Positions 6,710 to 23,934 of a DNA stretch of 48,530 nucleotides are shown here, piece after piece. The first letter of the stretch is position 1, and each line of letters opens with the position of its first letter. The DNA is from Candidatus Sulfopaludibacter sp. SbA3 (GTDB lineage Bacteria; Acidobacteriota; Terriglobia; Bryobacterales; Bryobacteraceae). The notes under the pieces are model-generated. The model did no database searches and had not been told where the DNA came from. It saw nothing but the letters and a program-made list of their open reading frames with translations. Where the stretch lies: the NCBI GenBank assembly GCA_945893365.1, contig CAMDED010000046.1:1-48530 (forward strand), written 5' to 3'. A program made the position numbers and the translations under genes.

Positions 6710-7945
6710 ATGGAACAATTGGAATCGGTATCCCCGGAGCTTCAGGTGGACGCAACGCCTCAGTCCGAACAGGAGCAGGGCCTGTCGCTCGTTGTGCCGG
6801 AGACCTCCGCCCTACCCGACGGCGATGCCCCCGTCGACGCCCCGATCGACGCCTCGCACGTGGACCCTACCCTCGCCGACGCCGCCGCCCCAATCGATGC
6901 CTCCCCCGGTGGCACTGCTCCCGTCGACCCTGCCCCCGTTGACCCTGCCCCAATCGATGCTGCCCCCGTCAACACCGCCCCAATCGGCGGCTCGCCCGTT
7001 GACCCTACCCTCGCCAACGCCGCCCCAATCGATGCCTCCCCCGGTGGCACTGCTCCCGTCGACCCTGCCCCCGTTGACCCTGCCCCAATCCACGCTACCC
7101 CCGTAAACACCGCCCCAATCAACACCGCCCCAATCGACGGCTCGCCCGTCGATCCTGCCCCGGTCGACCCCGCCCCAATCGACCCCGCCCCCGCCATTTC
7201 GGCTCAACCCCCGGAAGAGTTTCTGGGAGAGACTCACGACTCCGCTATCGTAACCGAAGACTTCCGGCTGAAGGCGGTGCTTGAAGCGATCGTCTACGTC
7301 ACCGACGAACCGCTTACGCTCGATCAGATTGCCGCCGCGCTCGCGGAACCGAAGGACCGCGTGGAGAAACTCCTCGCGGGGTTGGCCGCTGAATACGACC
7401 GTCCGGATCATGGCGTGATGATACGCGAGGTAGCGGGCGGCTACAAGATGGCGACGAAGCCCGAGCATCACGAAGCCGTGCGTGCGTTCGTGAAGAACCT
7501 GACGCCGCCTGCCAAGCTCTCGCTCGCCGCGCTCGAAACGCTCGCGGTCATCGCTTATAAGCAACCTATCACGGCGCCCGAAGTTATGGACGTTCGCGGC
7601 GTGCAGGGCGCTGGAGTCTTGAAGACGCTGCTCGACCGTAAGTTGATCGCGACCTCCGGCCGGAAGCAGGTTGTGGGCAAGCCGATTCTGTACAAGACGA
7701 CGCGGGATTTCCTGGTTCAGTTCGGCTTGAAGGACCTTTCCGAATTGCCCACCCTGAAGGAGTTCGAAGAGATCCGGCGCATGTCGGTGCCGGACATCGA
7801 GCCGTCCGGCCCGCCTCCTGAGCGCGAATCCGAGCCAGCCGCGGCCGAACCGCCGGCAGTTGTGCACCCGGCCGTCGAACCGCCGGAGACCGTCGAGCCC
7901 CAACCCGCTCCCATCGCCGAACCACCGGCGGAAGACAACGCCTGA
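6710..7945 (+). CDS. scpB: Segregation and condensation protein B with long repetitive N-terminal extension
   Basis: Partner of ScpA in the SMC complex. The ScpB core (two winged-helix domains) occupies about residues 184-365: FRLKAVLEAIVYVTDEPLTL, a helix-turn-helix-like segment, SLAALETLAVIAYKQPIT and GVLKTLLDRKLI. Typical ScpB is about 180-220 residues; this one is 411. The excess is a Pro/Ala/Asp-rich N-terminal region (about 40-161) made of PVDPA, PIDAS and PVNTA modules, and a Pro/Glu-rich tail after residue 365. Both should be disordered. The extension is encoded by tandem DNA repeats (separate entry) and is unlikely to be part of the conserved fold. The start ATG lies 5 bp after scpA; the stop overlaps the next ATG by 1 bp (TGATG). 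Confidence 0.93.
   Translation: MEQLESVSPELQVDATPQSEQEQGLSLVVPETSALPDGDAPVDAPIDASHVDPTLADAAAPIDASPGGTAPVDPAPVDPAPIDAAPVNTAPIGGSPVDPTLANAAPIDASPGGTAPVDPAPVDPAPIHATPVNTAPINTAPIDGSPVDPAPVDPAPIDPAPAISAQPPEEFLGETHDSAIVTEDFRLKAVLEAIVYVTDEPLTLDQIAAALAEPKDRVEKLLAGLAAEYDRPDHGVMIREVAGGYKMATKPEHHEAVRAFVKNLTPPAKLSLAALETLAVIAYKQPITAPEVMDVRGVQGAGVLKTLLDRKLIATSGRKQVVGKPILYKTTRDFLVQFGLKDLSELPTLKEFEEIRRMSVPDIEPSGPPPERESEPAAAEPPAVVHPAVEPPETVEPQPAPIAEPPAEDNA
6829..7194 (+). repeat. Tandem repeats in scpB encoding the Pro/Ala/Asp linker
   Basis: Short codon modules for PVDPA and PIDAS-like peptides are arranged in a higher-order repeat of 135 bp (45 codons). The segments at about 6883-6955 and 7018-7090 are identical over about 73 bp, including third positions, so the duplication is recent or kept homogeneous. 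All units stay in frame. Confidence 0.85.
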
Positions 7946-17500: not shown

Positions 17501-17961
17501 ATGAGGGATTGGAAATCGCGGCCGTTGAGCGGAATTTCCGTAACCTGGCGCGAGCTTAGCGTGAAGGATTTTTGAGACGTCGCGGTTTCGACGAGCGGGG
17601 TGGCCGCTTCAACGGTCACGGATTCGGAGACCGCGCCAACCTCCATGTTCAGTCTGCCGAGATCCATGACTTGGTTCGGGTCGAGGACAAGCCCCTTGCG
17701 TTCCACCATTTTGAAACCGGCAACTTCGGCCTTGATGGTGTAAGTTCCGCGGGCCAGAGGGCGGAGACTGAAGCCGCCGTCGGCGGCGGTTACGGTCTCG
17801 CGGGCGACCAAGTCCTTGGCTTCGTCAAACGCGACAATCTTTGCGTTCGCGATGGCTCCTCCCTGAGAGTCGGCGAGCGCGCCTTGAATAACGCCGTTCT
17901 GACACAAGGCAGGGACGGCGGTGAATAGAATCCCAACAATCAACGTAGATTTTCGAGACAT
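14506..17961 (-). CDS. TonB-dependent receptor, Oar-like, second copy
   Basis: The ATG at 17961 begins a signal peptide (SRKSTLIVGILFTAVPALC) and has AGGAGG upstream; an in-frame GTG at 17991 falls at the -10 box, so it cannot be the start if that promoter is used. The product of 1151 residues has the carboxypeptidase-regulatory-like domain (ALADSQGGAIANAKI, RGTYTIKAEVAGFKM), the plug (PLNGRDFQSLMRTLPGVVS, NNVYLDGAINTDVG, ISTKSGGADFHGTAYEF) and a barrel ending FGFKLLF. It is a paralogue of the receptor at 2528-5830, but with a different plug and barrel, so a different ligand is likely. The TPR gene follows directly. Confidence 0.93.
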   Translation of the reverse strand: MSRKSTLIVGILFTAVPALCQNGVIQGALADSQGGAIANAKIVAFDEAKDLVARETVTAADGGFSLRPLARGTYTIKAEVAGFKMVERKGLVLDPNQVMDLGRLNMEVGAVSESVTVEAATPLVETATSQKSFTLSSRQVTEIPLNGRDFQSLMRTLPGVVSNDRSDFRLAFNNTDAFNTNGLRGSMNNVYLDGAINTDVGANDGQYTQISLDSVGEFKVQTSTFNAEYGRNPGVLINISTKSGGADFHGTAYEFLRNDALDANDFFRNFQGLKKAKLRFNQFGGNLSGPIYLPRISTLKDKRLFFFFNYEGTRASRPTGGTFTDVQHPDLLNGDFRRLLRFNPDGSPVNISGTSFNVGTVFQPGTVVRDNGGRIIGGQPFPNNTIPRSQFSRNAPGFLNILGRIDRSTGVQVPNTPESLRIPYQDTYTFHKDQKVARVDWNISSRTNFFFRWADDSQNESQQLGIFASTSFAVFPQFRAKPGASWSWNLVNVISPRTTNEFIFNYNHLTQIVDVTSDTPADSYDRSKLGFTFQELYPNSNLRSKFPRFTCGTGCNFGGFPTGWLSEGKTYAWTDNFTTIRGSHTLKLGTLINMNDNGQQPSWTDASNFNFNPSADNPNDSGNGMANLLLGNYTSLSQTNGRFFGAFRFFGMEFFAQDSWKVNRKLTLEYGGRYVYMGPTYTRGPFLQNYFDPQRYDPAKAVSIDTRAGIRNGSIIPGSGDPFNGMIEENQPGWPSGGLKHRKNQVSPRFGFAYDPFGDGKTSIRGGIGTFFERIRQNANNFDGLGNPPLAYTPNIYGGNVDNVSPALIASGTRFPVGIRAINKEGQVPTIYTWSFGVQRELGRRTSIDAAYVGNTTRHLQYTADINQLPLGATTSTSILRDANNTANAIRPYKGYTNVNMTEFGANSNYHALQTRVSRRFASNLTANFSYTWSKAMSIVDGDTTGLGYYLDRKREYGPAGFDRTNVATIDYVYLLPAFGTKMGSGFAKTVLDGWQVSGITRFWSGSPLGVTMAANNGNPGTLGAGVRADYLGGQIIPANRTRFNFFDPLVFGRPLDGSLGNTGKVVLRGPGIHQWDFSIFKNTKITERVTTQFRFETFNTFNHTQWSGINTTVSGANPGSAVSAATIGASGQVSSTRDPRNVQFGFKLLF

Positions 17962-17992
17962 TTGTAACAAAACCTCCTGAATTTGTGGCACT

Positions 17993-17998
17993 ATTATA
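17993..17998 (-). promoter_or_regulatory. Consensus -10 box of the second TonB receptor
   Basis: TATAAT on the minus strand would place the transcript start at about 17986, giving a leader of about 25 nt that contains the AGGAGG site. No TTGACA-like -35 is seen: that position falls in the end of the repeat array, so the array may have replaced or redefined upstream promoter DNA. Confidence 0.55.
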
Positions 17999-18000
17999 AC

Positions 18001-18688
18001 TCATGGATGCTGCGGTCGCGGGACAGAGCAACGCGCCACGGAGCGGGAAGAAACAGCGCCACGTGGACGGGAAAAGCGGCGCGACACGGGACAGTGCGGC
18101 GCGCGGCACGGGACGGAGCAGAGCGGCGCGGGGAGAGCAGCAGAACGGGCGCCGCGGCGGGGCCGGGGGGGACAGAGCAGCGCAACACGGGCGTGGCAGA
18201 GACGCAACCAGACAGAGCGGCAGGGAGCGGGAAAAGAAACAGCGCCACCTGGACGGGAAAAGCGGCGCGACACGGGACAGTGCGGCGCGGGGAGAGCAGC
18301 AGAACGGGCGCCGCGGCGGGGCCGGGGGGACAGTGCGGCGCAGAGCGGGACAAAGCGGTTGGGCGGAGGGGTCCGGGGAGCGCGGCGGGGCGGGTGGACG
18401 GAGCAGCGCGACGCGGGACAGTGCGGGAACGGGCAGCGCGCCGTGGCGGGGGGACAGAGCAGCGCAACACGGGCGGGATAGAGACGGAGCGGGACGGAGC
18501 AGCGCGGCGCACGCGGAACAGAAGTGCAGCACTGTGCGAGAGCCGGGCGGCGCGCCGGGGCAGGGGCACGGAGTAGCGCAACGCGGAGGGAACAGAGGCG
18601 CAGCGGGACAGAAGCAGCGCGACTCGGGACAGAGCGGGACGGAGCAGTGCGGCGAGGCAATGACGCCGAGGTACGGGGCGCGTCCTCA
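18001..18688. repeat. Degenerate short-repeat array, almost free of T on the + strand
   Basis: There is no credible gene here. The + strand consists of many degenerate units of about 15-25 nt that begin GGGAC or GGGAA and continue like AGAGCAGCGCRACAC. By hand count, 18061-18660 contains only 19 T in 600 nt (3.2%). A longer segment is duplicated: 18051-18104 matches 18237-18290 with one mismatch, and 18123-18175 matches 18282-18333 apart from one G; the spacing changes from 186 to 159, so one copy carries 27 extra bases. The array lies between the 3' end of the ATPase gene and the -10 box of the receptor. On the minus strand it is C-rich and nearly A-free, as in Rho-utilisation sites; a long Rho terminator is one possible role. 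Confidence 0.85.
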
Positions 18689-20077
18689 TTATGCGCCTCC
18701 GGGGCGGGGCGCTTCTGGAATTGGGCCTTCCGGAGCGGGACCAGGGGGTGACGCAGAAAGTGAGATTTCGATTTTTCGTTCGCCGCGGCGGTGGAAGAAG
18801 CGGATCGTGAAGGCGGGATCGGTGACATCGCGCAGATGCTGGGAGATGTGACGGGGCGTCGAACGCCAGTCCAACGCGCGCGCCAAGTCCGTGGCGGAAC
18901 CCTTGAAGCCGCCGAGTTTGTGGAGGCTTTGGACGAGGCGCGACGGGACCGGTTTGAGAGCTTCGGCCAGTTCCTCCGGCGTGGCGTAAATGAATTTCCC
19001 GCTCATGGCTTGGCTGACGGCGGTACAGAGCGATCCGAGGATCGCGGAACGGAGCCCGTCGAAGGCGTCCGCGGGATTCTCCCGGGCGGGCTCTTCGGTT
19101 GGCTCGGGCGGCTCCAGATCTACAATAAGACAGCGGGCGGCGAGGTCCGGGTGCAACTTGAGGCGGTCGGTCGCGACGAGGATTATGGGGCGGAGGAGGT
19201 TTTGGGTTACGGTCCGGCCGCCGTCGCGGAAGGTGTGGGCGATGCCGGAGGTGAGAGTGCAGAGCGTATCGGAAACCTGCGTAGGGAGTTTGGAGACGTG
19301 GTCGAAGGCGAGGACCCAATTGTTGGAGGCGTCGCGCATAAGGGAACGGCGGCTGGTGGGCGCGGGCAGGAGAGGGGCGTGGCTGGGATCGATGAGTGAC
19401 TTGAGGATACGGGCAGTGGTGGACTTGCCTGAGCCCGAAGGGCCGCGCAGCAGGAGGATGGGATAGGGTCCGGTACCGGGGCGCATGGCGGTGAGGAGCC
19501 AGGTGAGGATGCGGAGGAAGGCAGGGCGGTCGTGGGAAAGACGGAGACAGCGGGCGAGGGGTTCGAAATCCGGGGTTTCAGTTTGGACGGGATGAGGAAG
19601 GGGCGCGTGGGAGCGGGTGCGCTGAAAGCAGGCTGGGTTGGAGTCGGCGACGGACCAGGAGGACGGGCCGATTTCGACGGTTTGGCCGTTGTCGAGGAGG
19701 TCGAGGACGATTTGGGAGGGGAGTGCGGCGAGGCGGAGGAAGACGGGGCGCTCGGCGGGATACATGGAGTTGCCGGGACCGAAGGCTTCGGCGGAGAGAC
19801 GGCGGATGGCTTCGGCGAGCGCGCGGGGTTTTGGGAACACGTTGAAGGTTTCGTGGAAGCGGCTGGTGAGATGGTCGCGGAGGTTGGGGGAGTGGAGGGC
19901 GACGATCTGCCGGCCGGTGGGACCGAAAGGGATGGAGACGAAAGCCTGGCCCTCGGGGGAGCGGAAGGCGGGATAGTCGGCGGCGAGGCAGAGGAGTTCG
20001 GTTGCGTGGTCGCCGGGCGCGGGAAAGCGCGGGGTGTGGACCGGGGAGGCGTAGCGGGGAGCGGTGTACTTGTCCAT
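18689..20077 (-). CDS. P-loop ATPase related to phage/plasmid D5-type primase-helicases
   Basis: 462 residues from the ATG at 20077 (the frame opens with TTG at 20083). The Walker A motif is GPSGSGKST at about residues 212-220. Downstream come NNWVLAFDHVSKLPTQVSDTL, which fits the Walker B and sensor region, a THTFRDGGR-like arginine segment, and LLRPIILVATDRLKLHPDLAARCLIVDLEPP, the pattern of D5-like helicase ATPases found beside primases in phages and integrated elements. The N-terminal 180 residues are not recognised; no primase motif is visible. The 3' part (about 400 onwards) ends in a Pro-rich tail. Composition is odd: at 19501-19560 the + strand is 33 G and 8 C of 60, so the coding strand is extremely C-rich, unlike neighbouring genes. 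A mobile or defence origin is inferred. Confidence 0.7.
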   Translation of the reverse strand: MDKYTAPRYASPVHTPRFPAPGDHATELLCLAADYPAFRSPEGQAFVSIPFGPTGRQIVALHSPNLRDHLTSRFHETFNVFPKPRALAEAIRRLSAEAFGPGNSMYPAERPVFLRLAALPSQIVLDLLDNGQTVEIGPSSWSVADSNPACFQRTRSHAPLPHPVQTETPDFEPLARCLRLSHDRPAFLRILTWLLTAMRPGTGPYPILLLRGPSGSGKSTTARILKSLIDPSHAPLLPAPTSRRSLMRDASNNWVLAFDHVSKLPTQVSDTLCTLTSGIAHTFRDGGRTVTQNLLRPIILVATDRLKLHPDLAARCLIVDLEPPEPTEEPARENPADAFDGLRSAILGSLCTAVSQAMSGKFIYATPEELAEALKPVPSRLVQSLHKLGGFKGSATDLARALDWRSTPRHISQHLRDVTDPAFTIRFFHRRGERKIEISLSASPPGPAPEGPIPEAPRPGGA

Positions 20078-20187
20078 GACCAAGGGAGTAACACGGCGCG
20101 GATGGCGAAATGGGTGGGGGGGAGGCGTAAGTGCTTGAAGGAATTGGGTGAAATATTCTTGGAAAGCTGTGGACGGCTGGCGGCATC

Positions 20188-23100
20188 ATGAAGCCCGCTT
20201 CGCCGATAGCAAGCGCCGGATACCTGCGCATCTTCGTCTCCTACGCCCGCCGGGACGGCGCGGAACTGGCGCTGCGTCTCCAGGAACATTTGACGGCGGC
20301 GGGCTTCTACGTCTGGCTCGACACCGAGAACACTGGCGGCTCGAGTTGGACTGCGGAGATCGAAGAGGAGATTGACCGGGCTCAGGTGGTTCTCGCCCTG
20401 CTCACACCAGGTTCTTACGCTTCCGGGATTTGCCGCGCCGAGCAACTTCGTTCCCTCCGCAAAGGCAAATGCGTCATTCCCCTGCTGGCCTCGCCGGAAA
20501 CCGACATTCCGCCGCATTTCGAACCAAGGAACTATCGCGACTTCACCGCCAAACGGGCCTACGCCGACAGCTTCCGGTCCCTGCTCGACGATATTGAGGA
20601 GCACAACGGCGCCACTCTGTCCCCAAGCTACCGCACGACGCCGGCCGCCTACATCACCGCGCCGCCCACGGTGGCGAATTACATCGACCGGCCGGAAGCG
20701 GTGAGGGCGCTGCGGGATGCGTTGTTCGGGGCGGATGGACATCGCGGGATCGGCTTGACGGCGCTCGAAGGCATGGGCGGCATAGGTAAAACCGTCCTGG
20801 CGCAAGCGCTGTTCAAGGACGAAGTGGTCCGGCAGGCGTTTCCCGACGGCCTTGTTTGGATCATGGTGGGCCGGGAACCCACGCACCGGCTGACCGCGAG
20901 GCTGCGCGAGATCACGAGGGCGCTCGGAGGCGCAAGCGACGAAACGGTTGCGCCTGAGACTTTGTACCGGACCGCCATCGCCGGTAAAGCCGCGCTCATC
21001 GTGATCGACGACATCCGGAGCAAGGCCGACCTCGACCCCTTTCTCGCCGAGTCGTCCCGCTCGCGCTTTCTGTTCACCACGCGCGACGCCGCAATAGCGG
21101 GGCTCTGCGGCGCGCGCGCGCACAGGGTGGATCCGCTGGACGAGGCGCAATCGCGGGAGCTGCTGGCGCTTTGGGCGGATCTGGAGACGGCCCAACTTCC
21201 GCCGGCGGCCGATACCATCCTTGGCGAGTGCGGCGGTTTGCCGCTGGCGTTGTCCACTGTGGGCGCGTTGCTGCGCGGGGCGTCGCTCGCCGAGTGGGCC
21301 GATACGGCCGAGCGTCTGCGCAACACGGATCTGGCCGCCATCGAAGACCAGCTTCCGCGAGGTCAGCAGAGTTTCTTCCGCGCGATCGACGTCAGCGTGA
21401 AAGCTCTGCCGCCGGAGATGCAGCGGCAGTACGGAAGTTTGGCCGTTCTGCTGGAAGATATGCCGCCGCCGCTGCCGGTTCTGGAAACTCTCTGGAATTG
21501 CGACGAAGCCGAAGCCCGGCGCATCGGCCGGCGGCTGGCGGACCGATCGCTGGCTCAGCGCGACGCTCAGCGCGATGGCGAGAGCGGCCTGCGCCTGCAC
21601 GACCTGCAACTGGATTACGTGCGGGCGAAGTACGAGGACCGGGAAGCGCTGGAGTCGATCCACGAGGCGGTCCGGTTGTCGGCGGACGTGATCGAGAGGG
21701 ATCCGCGCCAGTTCGCATCGCAGGTAGTGGGGCGGCTGCTGCCGCATCGGGATACTCCGGCGATTCAGCGGTTCCTCGACGGAATCGCGGCCGGAGCGCC
21801 CACGCCGTGGTTACGGCCGGTACACGAGGCGCTTCACGCTTCAGGCACGCTGCTGCCGCGCATTCCGGAAGGCCACTCCGCTCGTGTCAACGGCGTGGCG
21901 GTGACGCCGGACGGGAAGCGGGCGATTTCCGCGTCCTGGGGCAACACGTTGACGGTGTGGGATCTGGAAAGCGGCCGCGCTCTGCGCACGCTGGAAGGCC
22001 ACTCCGATTGGGTCGACGCCGTGGCGGTGACGCGGGACGGGAGACGGGCGGTCTCCGCGTCCTGGGATAAAACGCTGAAGGTGTGGGACCTGGAAAGCGG
22101 CCGTGCTCCGCGCACTCTCGAAGGCCACTCTTCTCATGTCAATGGCGTGGCGGTGACGCCGGACGGGAGGCGGGCGGTTTCCGCGTCCGACGACAGGACG
22201 CTGAAGGTGTGGGACCTGGGAAGCGGCCGCGTTCTCCGCACGCTGGAAGGCCACTCGTCTTACGTCACTGGGGTGGCGGTGACGCCGGACGGGAAGTGGG
22301 TGGTTTCCGCGTCGGCGGACCATACGCTGAAGGTGTGGGACTTGGGAGGCGGCAGCGCTCCGCGCACGCTGGAAGGCCACTCGTCATACGTCAACGGAGT
22401 GGCGATGACGCCGGATGGGAAGCGGGCGGTTTCCGCGTCGGCGGACCATACGCTGAAGGTGTGGGATCTGGAAAGCGGCAGCGCGCTGCGCACGCTGGAA
22501 GGCCACACCGATCGGGTCGGCGCCGTGGCGGTGACGCCGGACGGGAAATGGGCGGTTTCCGCGTCTTTGGACAATACGATGAAGGCATGGGACCTGGAAA
22601 GCGGCGACGCTCCACGCACGCTCGAAGGCCACTCGGCTCATGTCACTGGGGTGGCGGTGACGCCGGATGGGAAGCGCGCGGTTTCCGCGTCTTTGGACAA
22701 GACGCTGAAGGTGTGGGACCTGGAAAGCGGCCGCGCTCTGCCGACGCTGGAAGGCCACTCTCCTCAAGTCAACGGAGTGGCGGTGACGCCGGACGGGAAA
22801 CGGATGGTTTCCGCTTCCGGGGACAGGACGCTGAAGGTGTGGGAGGTGGAAGGCGGCGGAGCTCTGCGCACGCTCGAAGGCCACTCTTCTTCCGTCTCCG
22901 GCGTGGCGGTGACGCTGGACGGGAAGTGGGCGGTTTCCGCGTCTTTGGACAAGACGCTGAAGGTGTGGGACCTGGAAAGCGGCTGCGCTCTGCGCACACT
23001 GGAAGGCCACTCTTCCTTTGTCCACGGCGTGGCGGTGACGCCGGACGGGAAGCGGGCGGTTTCCGCGTCCGAGGACAAGACGTTGAAGGTGTGGGACCTG

Positions 23101-23688
23101 GAAAGGAAGCAGTGGGACCTGAAAACCTGGCGCGCTCTGCGCACGCTGGAAGGCCACTTTGCTTCCGTCCGTGGCGTGGCGGTGACGCCGGACGGGAAGC
23201 GGGCGGTTTCCGCGTCTAGCGACAGAACGCTAAAGGTGTGGGACCTGGAAACCGGCTGCGCTCTGCGCACGCTGGAGGGCCACTCTGAATCCGTCTTTGG
23301 CGTGGCGGTCACGCCGGATGGGAAGCGGGCGGTTTCCGCGTCTGGGGACAAGACGTTGAAGATGTGGGACCTGGAAAGCGGCTGCGCTCTGCGCACGCTC
23401 GAAGGCCACTCTGAATCTGTCTTCGGCGTAGCGGTGACGCCGGACGGGAAGCGGGCGGTTTCCGCGTCCGACGACAAGACGCTGAAAGTGTGGGATCTGG
23501 AAAGCGGCATGCCGGTCGTCACATTCCATTGCGCCGCGCCGGCGCTTTGCTCCGCGTGCGTCCCGGCGCCTCGCGGGGTATTCGTCAATGAAGTGCGTAT
23601 CGTTGCCGGCGACGACGGCGGCCGCGTGTATACCCTTTCGCTAGAGGAGTCCGGCGCGCGCGGAGCCAAGGCGAGAGCAAGGGCCTGA
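20188..23688 (+). CDS. TIR / NB-ARC / WD40 STAND protein
   Basis: 1166 residues. TIR domain at about 10-135: RIFVSYARRDG, GFYVWLDTE, VVLALLTPGSYASGICRAEQL, where E85 occupies the position of the NADase glutamate. NB-ARC NTPase at about 165-400: Walker A GMGGIGKT (195-202), Walker B ALIVIDD (269-275), RFLFTTRD (293-300) and GLPLAL (350-355). From about 557 come 13 near-identical 42-residue WD40 blades and a divergent fourteenth (VRIVAGDDGGRVYTLSL), enough for two seven-bladed propellers. Bacterial TIR-STAND proteins are known or proposed antiphage sensors: the repeats bind a ligand, the NTPase oligomerises, and the TIR consumes NAD+. Start at 20188 has only a weak ribosome-binding site. It diverges from the D5-like ATPase across 110 bp. 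Blade 10 carries a 7-residue insertion. Confidence 0.92.
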   Translation: MKPASPIASAGYLRIFVSYARRDGAELALRLQEHLTAAGFYVWLDTENTGGSSWTAEIEEEIDRAQVVLALLTPGSYASGICRAEQLRSLRKGKCVIPLLASPETDIPPHFEPRNYRDFTAKRAYADSFRSLLDDIEEHNGATLSPSYRTTPAAYITAPPTVANYIDRPEAVRALRDALFGADGHRGIGLTALEGMGGIGKTVLAQALFKDEVVRQAFPDGLVWIMVGREPTHRLTARLREITRALGGASDETVAPETLYRTAIAGKAALIVIDDIRSKADLDPFLAESSRSRFLFTTRDAAIAGLCGARAHRVDPLDEAQSRELLALWADLETAQLPPAADTILGECGGLPLALSTVGALLRGASLAEWADTAERLRNTDLAAIEDQLPRGQQSFFRAIDVSVKALPPEMQRQYGSLAVLLEDMPPPLPVLETLWNCDEAEARRIGRRLADRSLAQRDAQRDGESGLRLHDLQLDYVRAKYEDREALESIHEAVRLSADVIERDPRQFASQVVGRLLPHRDTPAIQRFLDGIAAGAPTPWLRPVHEALHASGTLLPRIPEGHSARVNGVAVTPDGKRAISASWGNTLTVWDLESGRALRTLEGHSDWVDAVAVTRDGRRAVSASWDKTLKVWDLESGRAPRTLEGHSSHVNGVAVTPDGRRAVSASDDRTLKVWDLGSGRVLRTLEGHSSYVTGVAVTPDGKWVVSASADHTLKVWDLGGGSAPRTLEGHSSYVNGVAMTPDGKRAVSASADHTLKVWDLESGSALRTLEGHTDRVGAVAVTPDGKWAVSASLDNTMKAWDLESGDAPRTLEGHSAHVTGVAVTPDGKRAVSASLDKTLKVWDLESGRALPTLEGHSPQVNGVAVTPDGKRMVSASGDRTLKVWEVEGGGALRTLEGHSSSVSGVAVTLDGKWAVSASLDKTLKVWDLESGCALRTLEGHSSFVHGVAVTPDGKRAVSASEDKTLKVWDLERKQWDLKTWRALRTLEGHFASVRGVAVTPDGKRAVSASSDRTLKVWDLETGCALRTLEGHSESVFGVAVTPDGKRAVSASGDKTLKMWDLESGCALRTLEGHSESVFGVAVTPDGKRAVSASDDKTLKVWDLESGMPVVTFHCAAPALCSACVPAPRGVFVNEVRIVAGDDGGRVYTLSLEESGARGAKARARA
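21861..23520 (+). repeat. Thirteen tandem 126-bp WD40 repeat units
   Basis: The units encode LEGHSxxVxGVAVTPDGK followed by RAVSASxDxTLKVWDLESG. They are near-identical at the DNA level, including third positions. Variation concentrates at unit positions 6, 7, 9, 25, 27 and 38 (counting from the L of LEGH). One unit (near 23095-23130) carries 21 extra bases, a partial duplication of its VWDLE segment. The pattern suggests recent unit amplification and gene conversion. Confidence 0.9.
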
Positions 23689-23762
23689 CGCCCCAGGGCG
23701 GTTGGGACCGGCGAATCCGAGGTACGCTACGCGGCGAGGTCCCGGCGGTCCGATCCTGGATC

Positions 23763-23934
23763 ATTAAGGTCGCTTCGCCGATGGCGAAGGCCGGATATCG
23801 ACGCATCTTCCTCTCCTACGCCCGCAAGGACGGCGTGGATCAGGCGCTGCGTCTCCAGAAGGATTTGACGGAGGCGTGAAGACCGGAAAGGGGGTCTCGC
23901 GCCGGTTTCTCCCGGGTCTTACGTTTCCGAGATG
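23763..23934 (+). pseudogene. Decayed N-terminus of a second TIR-STAND gene
   Basis: The sequence aligns with the start of the gene at 20188: ATT AAG GTC GCT TCG CCG corresponds to ATG AAG CCC GCT TCG CCG, so the original start has become ATT. The frame then reads MAKAGYRRIFLSYARKDGVD (from 23781), parallel to AGYLRIFVSYARRDGAE, and hits a stop at 23877. After a deletion, SPGSYVSEM at about 23908-23934 matches TPGSYASGI of the intact TIR. Nothing of the NTPase or WD40 part remains before the S41 gene. This is the relic of a tandem or related TIR gene. Confidence 0.8.

What the first reader, a model, noticed from the sequence alone, without database searches (positions are those of the whole stretch)
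21861..23520. Near-identical WD40 blades that vary at fixed surface positions
Across 13 units, changes cluster at unit positions 6, 7, 9, 25, 27 and 38, while the framework and many silent sites are constant. Fungal HET-D/HET-E WD40 repeats, also 42 residues long, show the same design: homogenised repeats with hypervariable binding-surface residues. This suggests a rapidly reshuffled recognition surface.
Basis: partly seen in the sequence, partly recalled or inferred. Interest (0 to 1): 0.65.

Follow-up and report, generated by a model that had tools for sequence, protein, structure and literature searches.

The report
Bacterial immune-type receptor with shuffled blades
This bacterium carries a gene built like an animal or fungal immune receptor whose sensor is made of 13 near-copies of one building block that differ mainly at the few spots expected to touch a target, which suggests that bacteria re-mix such sensors much as fungi do.

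Summary
Window 20188-23688 (+) encodes one 1166-aa TIR / NB-ARC (Apaf-1-like) / WD40 receptor. pN there is 2.2 times array-wide pS. Positions 7, 9, 25 and 27 are the four codons under positive selection in fungal HET-D/HET-E (PMC1805685); 7, 9 and 25 are known top-face binding hotspots of WD40 propellers (PMC3419727); 38 lies at the opposite rim. The model shows two seven-bladed propellers: 13 units plus one cryptic cap blade. Relatives in the family and in cyanobacteria show the same columns. Blade order is not conserved between the window and the relatives tested, nor between two cyanobacterial receptors with 87% identical N-termini; at 93% a weak trace remains, but no shared contact combination. 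Strains of the window's own species could not be tested. Near-identical WD40 blades on bacterial STAND proteins, and diverse hotspots in such blades, are in print (PMC9218822, PMC5587647): a new, well-resolved member of a known kind. The immune role is inferred.

The parts
20188..23688 (+). Receptor gene, 1166 aa: TIR - NB-ARC - WHD - linker - 13 WD40 units - cap blade
   Evidence: Single open frame; Pfam domains
20230..20586 (+). TIR domain (TIR_2, aa 15-133), putative NADase/effector
   Evidence: Pfam E 1.4e-20; nearest solved chains are SARM1 TIR, aligned over aa 14-79 only; E85 invariant in the 7 sequences aligned
20701..21402 (+). NB-ARC STAND ATPase (aa 172-405), Walker A GMGGIGKT at aa 195-202
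   Evidence: Pfam E 1.3e-29; best solved relative is Apaf-1; only NB-ARC match found in this genome at E 0.001
21415..21618 (+). Apaf-1-like winged helix (aa 410-477) with LHD motif at aa 470-472
   Evidence: Pfam E 3.9e-5, 24.2 bits, under its cut-off of 27; LHD invariant in the 7 sequences aligned
21619..21864 (+). Helical linker before the propellers; its end probably gives the closing strand of the array
   Evidence: aa 491-556 is better conserved than the rest of the N-terminus against G002, G035, G171c and G171d, not against G142, G162 or G163; the closing-strand role is inference
21865..23523 (+). 13 near-identical 42-aa WD40 units; hypervariable columns 6, 7, 9, 25, 27 (top face) and 38
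21865..22746 (+). Predicted propeller 1 (units 1-7)
   Evidence: AF2 model pLDDT 81.6, confidence dip at the unit 7/8 junction; aligns to 7-bladed nvWRAP-T, Z 49.7, rmsd 1.0, 284 aligned
22747..23652 (+). Predicted propeller 2 (units 8-13 plus cap)
   Evidence: whole model aligns to 2ymu over 576 residues, Z 48.7, rmsd 4.0
23098..23118 (+). 7-aa insert in unit 10 (aa 971-977, ERKQWDL), a partial repeat of KVWDL
23524..23652 (+). Cryptic C-terminal cap blade (aa 1113-1155)
   Evidence: Similar tails end the 10 relatives' arrays that reach their C-terminus, window included, and the cyanobacterial ones printed
23730..23934 (+). Decayed relic of a second TIR receptor start just downstream
   Evidence: blastx: 67% over 49 aa to the N-terminus of G171b (23730-23876), then SPGSYVSEM in another frame resembling the later TIR motif of G035 (23896-23934)

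Best explanation
A bacterial TIR-NLR: an Apaf-1-like STAND switch with a putative NAD-cleaving TIR effector at the N-terminus and a clamp of two seven-bladed WD40 propellers as sensor. The sensor is built from 13 units kept alike by exchange among repeats (unequal crossing-over or gene conversion, within the array and apparently between receptor genes). New variants at five top-face positions per blade (6, 7, 9, 25, 27) are kept by diversifying selection and re-sorted into new blade combinations. Ligand binding would open the NB-ARC, oligomerise it and switch on the TIR, killing or arresting the infected cell. Shown: domains, fold by model, column pattern, pN above pS, loss of blade order between relatives. 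Inferred: ligand binding, oligomerisation, TIR activity, anti-phage role.
For: Domains. Hypervariable columns: (pooled over the 10 of 15 extracted arrays with six or more usable units, only columns 6, 7, 9, 25 and 27 exceed array-wide pS; all 115 units differ at 7/9/25/27). Of 19 arrays, mean pN at 7/9/25/27 exceeds pS in 17; the exceptions are the two arrays with mean blade identity below 0.5. Strongest case: Arthrospira sp. PCC 9108 (complete chromosome record), 14 units, pS 0.08, pN at five columns 0.51, elsewhere 0.02. Top-face mapping. Turnover. Exchange between loci: window versus same-genus G002, N-terminal pS 0.58 but blade pS 0.24, like the within-window 0.26; window versus G171d, N-terminal pS 0.57-0.65, blades 0.31. 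Blade number: 7 of 10 arrays reaching a cap have exactly 13 units. Conflict context: relatives carry other effectors on the same sensor plan, GT4-conflict (E 2e-91) in L040 and HNH in L079.
Against: No ligand, no functional data, no classic defence island around the gene. G002 contributes only two blades (contig end), and the closest relative, G171a, shows no blade-versus-N-terminus gap (0.39 and 0.37). pN/pS here is a counting measure (Nei-Gojobori) on recombining repeats, not a likelihood test, and codon bias may lower pS: expected saturation is 0.52 in blades against 0.68 in the N-terminus. By slot number, window-G171a shows a weak nucleotide signal (p 0.015) and window-G035 one at variable sites (p 0.03), of 21 pairs; both vanish in the gap-tolerant test, which instead shows residual order in the 93% pair L085-L086 (p 0.037 and 0.013). 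The catalytic glutamate could not be aligned by tool: the SARM1 match stops at residue 79.
Confidence: 0.68

Rival explanations
1. Relaxed constraint only: exposed loop positions of any WD40 repeat vary most, and the repeats are alike because they were amplified recently (the propeller birth-and-decay cycle); no diversifying selection.
For: In two non-homogenised arrays (L084, L119; mean blade identity 0.41 and 0.43) the same four columns are variable with pN/pS of 0.79 and 0.94. Recent amplification of near-identical blades without known benefit is documented (PMC9218822, two sections read). The pS baseline may be lowered by codon bias.
Against: The mean of six exposed bottom-loop columns (15, 18, 35-38) stays below pS in 19 of 19 arrays, although column 38 alone exceeds it in the window.
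Confidence: 0.2
2. Assembly artefact: short-read assembly built a chimeric or wrong-length array.
For: The genome is in 299 contigs; PMC12222747 reports that Illumina assemblies fail on such arrays (abstract passage); four relatives end inside the array at a contig end (G002, G171b, G171c, G173).
Against: 13 of 13 units are distinct at 7/9/25/27, so they are not collapsed copies; six other genomes give the same 13 + cap; a complete chromosome record gives the same design. The exact order and number in the window remain unverified.
Confidence: 0.05
3. Targeted hypermutation by a diversity-generating retroelement rather than shuffling plus selection.
For: DGRs diversify sensors of STAND systems in other bacteria (PMC10907252, outline and passages); the genome holds 6 reverse-transcriptase matches.
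Against: None of the six lies on the window contig; variable codons are not adenine-restricted, e.g. position 25 uses TGG, GAC, GCG, TTG, GGG, GAG, AGC. No template-repeat search was run.
Confidence: 0.03

Closest known systems
WRAP, the C-terminal WD40 domain of Npun_R6612 of Nostoc punctiforme, a STAND protein transcriptionally coupled to a TIR-STAND gene (PMC9218822); closest solved chain 2ymu
   Same: STAND context, near-identical WD40 blades forming two seven-bladed propellers; 2ymu is the best hit by sequence (E 2e-253), Foldseek rank 1 and VIA-align rank 2 (Z 48.7, rmsd 4.0, 576 aligned). That 2ymu is WRAP rests on its title and on recall.
   Different: TIR, switch and propellers are in one chain here; the array is older (pS 0.26 against no synonymous changes reported for WRAP) and its differences concentrate on top-face codons
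Fungal HET-D / HET-E / HET-R (HNWD) allorecognition receptors (PMC1805685, PMC12222747)
   Same: WD40 units with codon numbering that fits 42 aa, concerted evolution, positive selection at codons 7, 9, 25, 27; two modelled seven-bladed propellers with cryptic C-terminal blades (11 + 3 there, 13 + 1 here)
   Different: HET effector and NACHT switch there, TIR and NB-ARC here; 75% mean unit identity here; no known polymorphic partner like HET-C
Highly repetitive prokaryotic WD40 proteins (Hu et al. 2017, PMC5587647)
   Same: That survey states that most sites are conserved while sites such as the interaction hotspots are diverse; 50% of its 305 proteins are bacterial
   Different: The passages and section read give no codon-level selection test, no receptor-by-receptor turnover and no fungal comparison of positions
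Apaf-1
   Same: NB-ARC plus winged helix plus WD40 propellers; best solved relative of the switch (E 4e-28)
   Different: CARD instead of TIR; diverged, fixed blades sensing cytochrome c (recalled)

Membership tests
NB-ARC STAND receptor (AP-ATPase / bacterial NLR) | NB-ARC with Walker A and following winged helix | tested here: met
   (NB-ARC E 1.3e-29; APAF-1-like WHD E 3.9e-5, 24.2 bits against a cut-off of 27), (GMGGIGKT and LHD invariant in the 7 aligned)
TIR-domain effector | TIR fold by profile | tested here: met
   TIR_2 E 1.4e-20
TIR-domain effector | Catalytic glutamate and NAD cleavage | tested here: inconclusive
   E85 invariant but the SARM1 alignment ends at residue 79; activity needs an assay
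Highly repetitive / WRAP-type WD40 propeller | Median internal blade identity above 60% (PMC9218822) | tested here: met
   Mean 75%; the mean, not the median, was computed
Highly repetitive / WRAP-type WD40 propeller | Two seven-bladed propellers | tested here: met
   By model only; inter-propeller orientation uncertain (pTM 0.53)
Fungal HNWD (HET-D/E) receptors | HET effector and NACHT switch | tested here: not met
   TIR and NB-ARC instead; neither HET nor NACHT among the 6 Pfam matches at E up to 0.1
Fungal HNWD (HET-D/E) receptors | HiC repeats, over 85% identity across at least 100 aa (PMC4986451, passage) | tested here: not met
   Mean 75%, best unit pair 86%
Fungal HNWD (HET-D/E) receptors | Excess non-synonymous change at codons 7, 9, 25, 27 | tested here: met
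   (counting method)
Fungal HNWD (HET-D/E) receptors | Repeat number and order polymorphism between strains | not testable with these tools
   One genome per species held; shown only between species
Anti-phage defence system | Protects from phage | not testable with these tools
   PADLOC gives only partial matches, to TIR or TIR-like effector models, a repeat model and a few weak others

The most novel reading that the evidence does not exclude
Bacterial TIR-NLRs draw on a pool of interchangeable WD40 blades that moves between receptor genes and genomes. Selection has hit the same four codons per blade as in fungal allorecognition genes, and the closed 2 x 7 architecture fixes the number of slots, so each receptor is a 13-slot combinatorial sensor renewed while its signalling half stays conserved and its effector (TIR, HNH, GT4) can be swapped.
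Probability: 0.4. Interest if true: 0.72.

Novelty: new member of a known kind. Interest (0 to 1): 0.47.

Why it matters
If right, bacteria and fungi use one engineering trick: a rigid, homogenised WD40 scaffold with a handful of freely changing contact residues per blade, re-sorted by recombination. This makes a long-standing question testable (what do WD40 NLRs of bacteria see, and how do they keep up with changing targets?), because each receptor's specificity could be read as about five residues times 13 blades.

Tried and rejected
A full-length single-sequence AF2 model was poor (mean pLDDT 42) and was used only for strand positions in the blades, later confirmed by the six-sequence WD40 model. 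The first scan of named genomes confirmed no relative. PHROGs gave nothing for the receptor N-terminus or the divergent upstream gene; NCBIfam gave no match near its cut-off. Of four neighbouring genes tested (AAA, S41 peptidase, aldo-keto reductase, TonB receptor), only the TonB receptor had hits in the 21 relatives' loci compared, in three of them, so no conserved operon is claimed. Plasmid collection: 126 records with a match, all under 60% identity. Linkage between the two variable patches within a blade is absent in the window (r -0.15) but present at p below 0.05 in two of 11 arrays (L089, G142), so within-blade reassortment is not claimed as general. A slot-by-slot comparison first suggested complete loss of blade correspondence in the 93% cyanobacterial pair; a gap-tolerant test showed a weak residual order there, and the claim was reduced. 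Apaf-1 does not appear in the 50 printed VIA-align rows although Foldseek ranks it 10th. A HET-E sequence was not obtained; the comparison of positions rests on the paper's numbering and on my reading that its conserved codons 8 and 26 equal V8 and D26 here.

Literature seen: PMC1805685, PMC12222747, PMC4986451, PMC7159879, PMC5120217, PMC3419727 (passages); PMC9218822 (passages and two sections); PMC5587647 (passages and one section); PMC10907252 (outline and passages); all others only as search listings. Searches behind the statement that no codon-level selection test on bacterial receptor WD40 blades was found. Dunin-Horkawicz et al. 2014, cited in PMC9218822, was not looked up, and most subscription papers are not held, so it may be in print there.
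Full report
1. What is there. The window is contig C46 of a 7.88-Mb genome in 299 contigs. One open frame, 20188-23688 (+), encodes 1166 aa: TIR_2 (aa 15-133), NB-ARC (172-405), an Apaf-1-like winged helix (410-477), a helical linker, 13 WD40 units and a cryptic C-terminal blade. The nearest solved relative of the switch is Apaf-1, of the TIR SARM1, of the WD40 part 2ymu. It is the only NB-ARC match found in this genome. The other WD40 matches in the genome are 28-35% identical to it, so no internal donor array was seen.

2. The observation. Units are 42 aa, numbered from LEGHS. pN there is 0.57, against 0.08 for the other 36 columns and pS 0.26 over the array. H4, S22, S24, T28 and W32 are fixed in all 13 units, D26 in 12 (G in unit 1). 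All 13 units differ at 7/9/25/27.

3. Where the columns sit. The six-sequence AF2 model of the WD40 part has mean pLDDT 81.6 (pTM 0.53), strands at about unit positions 8-13 (a), 19-24 (b), 28-33 (c) and 38/39 to 2 of the next unit (d), and a confidence dip at the unit 7/8 junction; lower-confidence stretches also lie at the ends, near unit 10's insert and in the cap. Columns 6, 7 and 9 are therefore in the d-a loop and start of strand a, 25 and 27 in the b-c turn; that these two face the top is stated for HET-E in PMC1805685. Wu et al. define top-face hotspots R1-2, R1 and D-1 from the pattern (V,L,I)-R1-R2-(V,L,I) and the tetrad Asp (PMC3419727); applied here by me they are columns 7, 9 and 25. 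Column 38 is on the other side. Units 1-7 match a seven-bladed WRAP-derived propeller (Z 49.7, rmsd 1.0, 284 aligned) and the whole model matches 2ymu (Z 48.7, rmsd 4.0, 576 aligned).

4. Relatives. Of 237 genomes of the same family, 18 (the window's own included) have a match to the N-terminal 555 aa at E of 1e-40 or better. I fetched 23 regions; 14 of them gave a WD40 array of interest, 15 arrays with the window. Most of the other nine end at or near the receptor's sensor or gave no array by my pattern; L041 holds an ordinary WD40 protein of the window's genome. Ten arrays reach the cap blade: seven have exactly 13 units (window, G035, G171a, G197, G163, G142, G162), the others 10, 7 and 4. 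In G171a two of the 13 are degenerate. Four are cut by contig ends (G002, G171b, G171c, G173), and G002gt is a different protein with three 40-aa units and a cap-like tail, not counted among the ten.

5. Column pattern in relatives. Ten of the 15 arrays had at least six usable units. Pooled within-array comparisons give pN above pS only at columns 6 (1.53), 7 (1.91), 9 (1.60), 25 (1.79) and 27 (1.58); 38 gives 0.82; 115 of 115 units are distinct at 7/9/25/27. Of 19 arrays with six or more units (three of the 13 too short; G142 counted once, as L079), mean pN at 7/9/25/27 exceeds pS in 17, and the four columns beat random column sets at P of 0.0006 or less in 17 (others 0.0058 and 0.010). At least two of these arrays lie in a neighbouring frame rather than in the receptor. 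The cleanest is Arthrospira sp. PCC 9108: 14 units, 88% identical, pS 0.08, pN 0.51 at five columns and 0.02 elsewhere; two of its units carry a one-residue insertion that my columns leave out.

6. Turnover. Slot by slot, over 21 pairs of seven 13-unit arrays, three reach p of 0.02 or less on nucleotides (window-G171a, G197-G162, G142-G162) and one p of 0.03 at hypervariable sites (window-G035). A gap-tolerant test of 11 chosen pairs finds no conserved blade order between the window and any of seven relatives, nor between G171a and G197, L085 and L087, or L086 and L087 (p 0.168 or more in all ten). In cyanobacteria, Calothrix L085 and Nostoc L086 share 93% N-terminal identity (pS 0.19) but have 11 and 14 units; here a residual order signal remains (nucleotides p 0.037, variable sites p 0.013), yet none of their 9 and 12 distinct five-residue combinations is shared; L086 and L087 (87%) share none of 12 and 14, and no order. 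The sensor thus diverges far faster than the switch.

7. Exchange between genes. The same-genus receptor G002 is near saturation against the window in the N-terminus (pS 0.58) yet its two blades differ by pS 0.24, like the window's own; G171d shows N-terminal pS 0.57-0.65 and blade pS 0.31; G171a, a closer relative, shows no such gap (0.37 and 0.39). In a unit tree 11 of 13 window units have their nearest neighbour in the window, one in G171d and one in G002.

8. Mechanism. The anatomy fits a closed STAND switch whose C-terminal clamp reads a ligand and releases TIR activity. The TIR has an invariant E85 and the switch keeps GMGGIGKT and LHD. Two relatives carry a different effector in front of the same switch and blades: HNH in L079 (G142) and the GT4-conflict glycosyltransferase in L040, as expected for a conflict system. 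Ligand, oligomerisation and NAD cleavage are inferred from the families. The PADLOC matches are partial and the neighbours tested look like housekeeping, envelope or unassigned genes.

9. Against what is known. Paoletti et al. found codons 7, 9, 25 and 27 under positive selection with purifying selection at 8 and 26, and concerted evolution within and between loci. Functional HET-D/E alleles usually have 11 conserved repeats plus three cryptic ones, modelled as 2 x 7 blades. Pereira and Lupas described near-identical blades on a STAND protein coupled to a TIR-STAND gene, and independent amplification of blades. Hu et al. noted conserved frames with diverse hotspot sites in highly repetitive WD40 proteins, half of them bacterial. 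The general design is thus in print; the codon-level match of bacterial receptors with fungal ones, the turnover at 87-93% N-terminal identity and the inter-locus blade similarity are what this analysis adds, as far as my searches show.

10. Limits. One genome per species; fragmented assemblies; counting-based pN/pS; model-based fold; no functional data. L079 has the contig length and reading frame of G142 and is titled 'Acidobacteria bacterium', so the family is probably in Acidobacteriota; the window itself is unnamed.

Noticed in passing
window 23730-23934 (+): Decayed start of a second TIR receptor gene directly downstream (67% to the G171b N-terminus over 49 aa, then a stop and a frame change), a sign of gene birth and death at this locus.
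   Followed up: yes
L063 6487-10057 (G197): Homologous receptor split into two overlapping reading frames between switch and sensor, a frameshift or sequencing error.
   Followed up: partly
L040 1570-4749 (G002 C136): NB-ARC protein with an N-terminal GT4-conflict glycosyltransferase (Pfam E 2e-91) and APAF1_C helical domain, and three near-identical 40-aa WD40 units plus a cap-like tail.
   Followed up: partly
L079 3271-7200 (G142): A receptor of the family with 13 units and an HNH endonuclease match (E 2.9e-6) instead of a TIR in front of the NB-ARC: effector swapping on a shared sensor plan.
   Followed up: partly
window 18689-20083 (-): Divergent gene with a P-loop (weak AAA_5/AAA_16) whose frame starts 105 bases from the receptor's; no PHROGs match and no copy in the relatives' loci compared.
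   Followed up: partly
window 17825-18600: Imperfect repeats and long overlapping frames on both strands in a strongly G-skewed stretch (GC skew 0.33 over 18001-20000).
   Followed up: no
window 6838-7193 (+): Tandem repeats of 15, 30, 75 and 135 bases inside the ScpB gene, coding a repetitive N-terminal extension.
   Followed up: no
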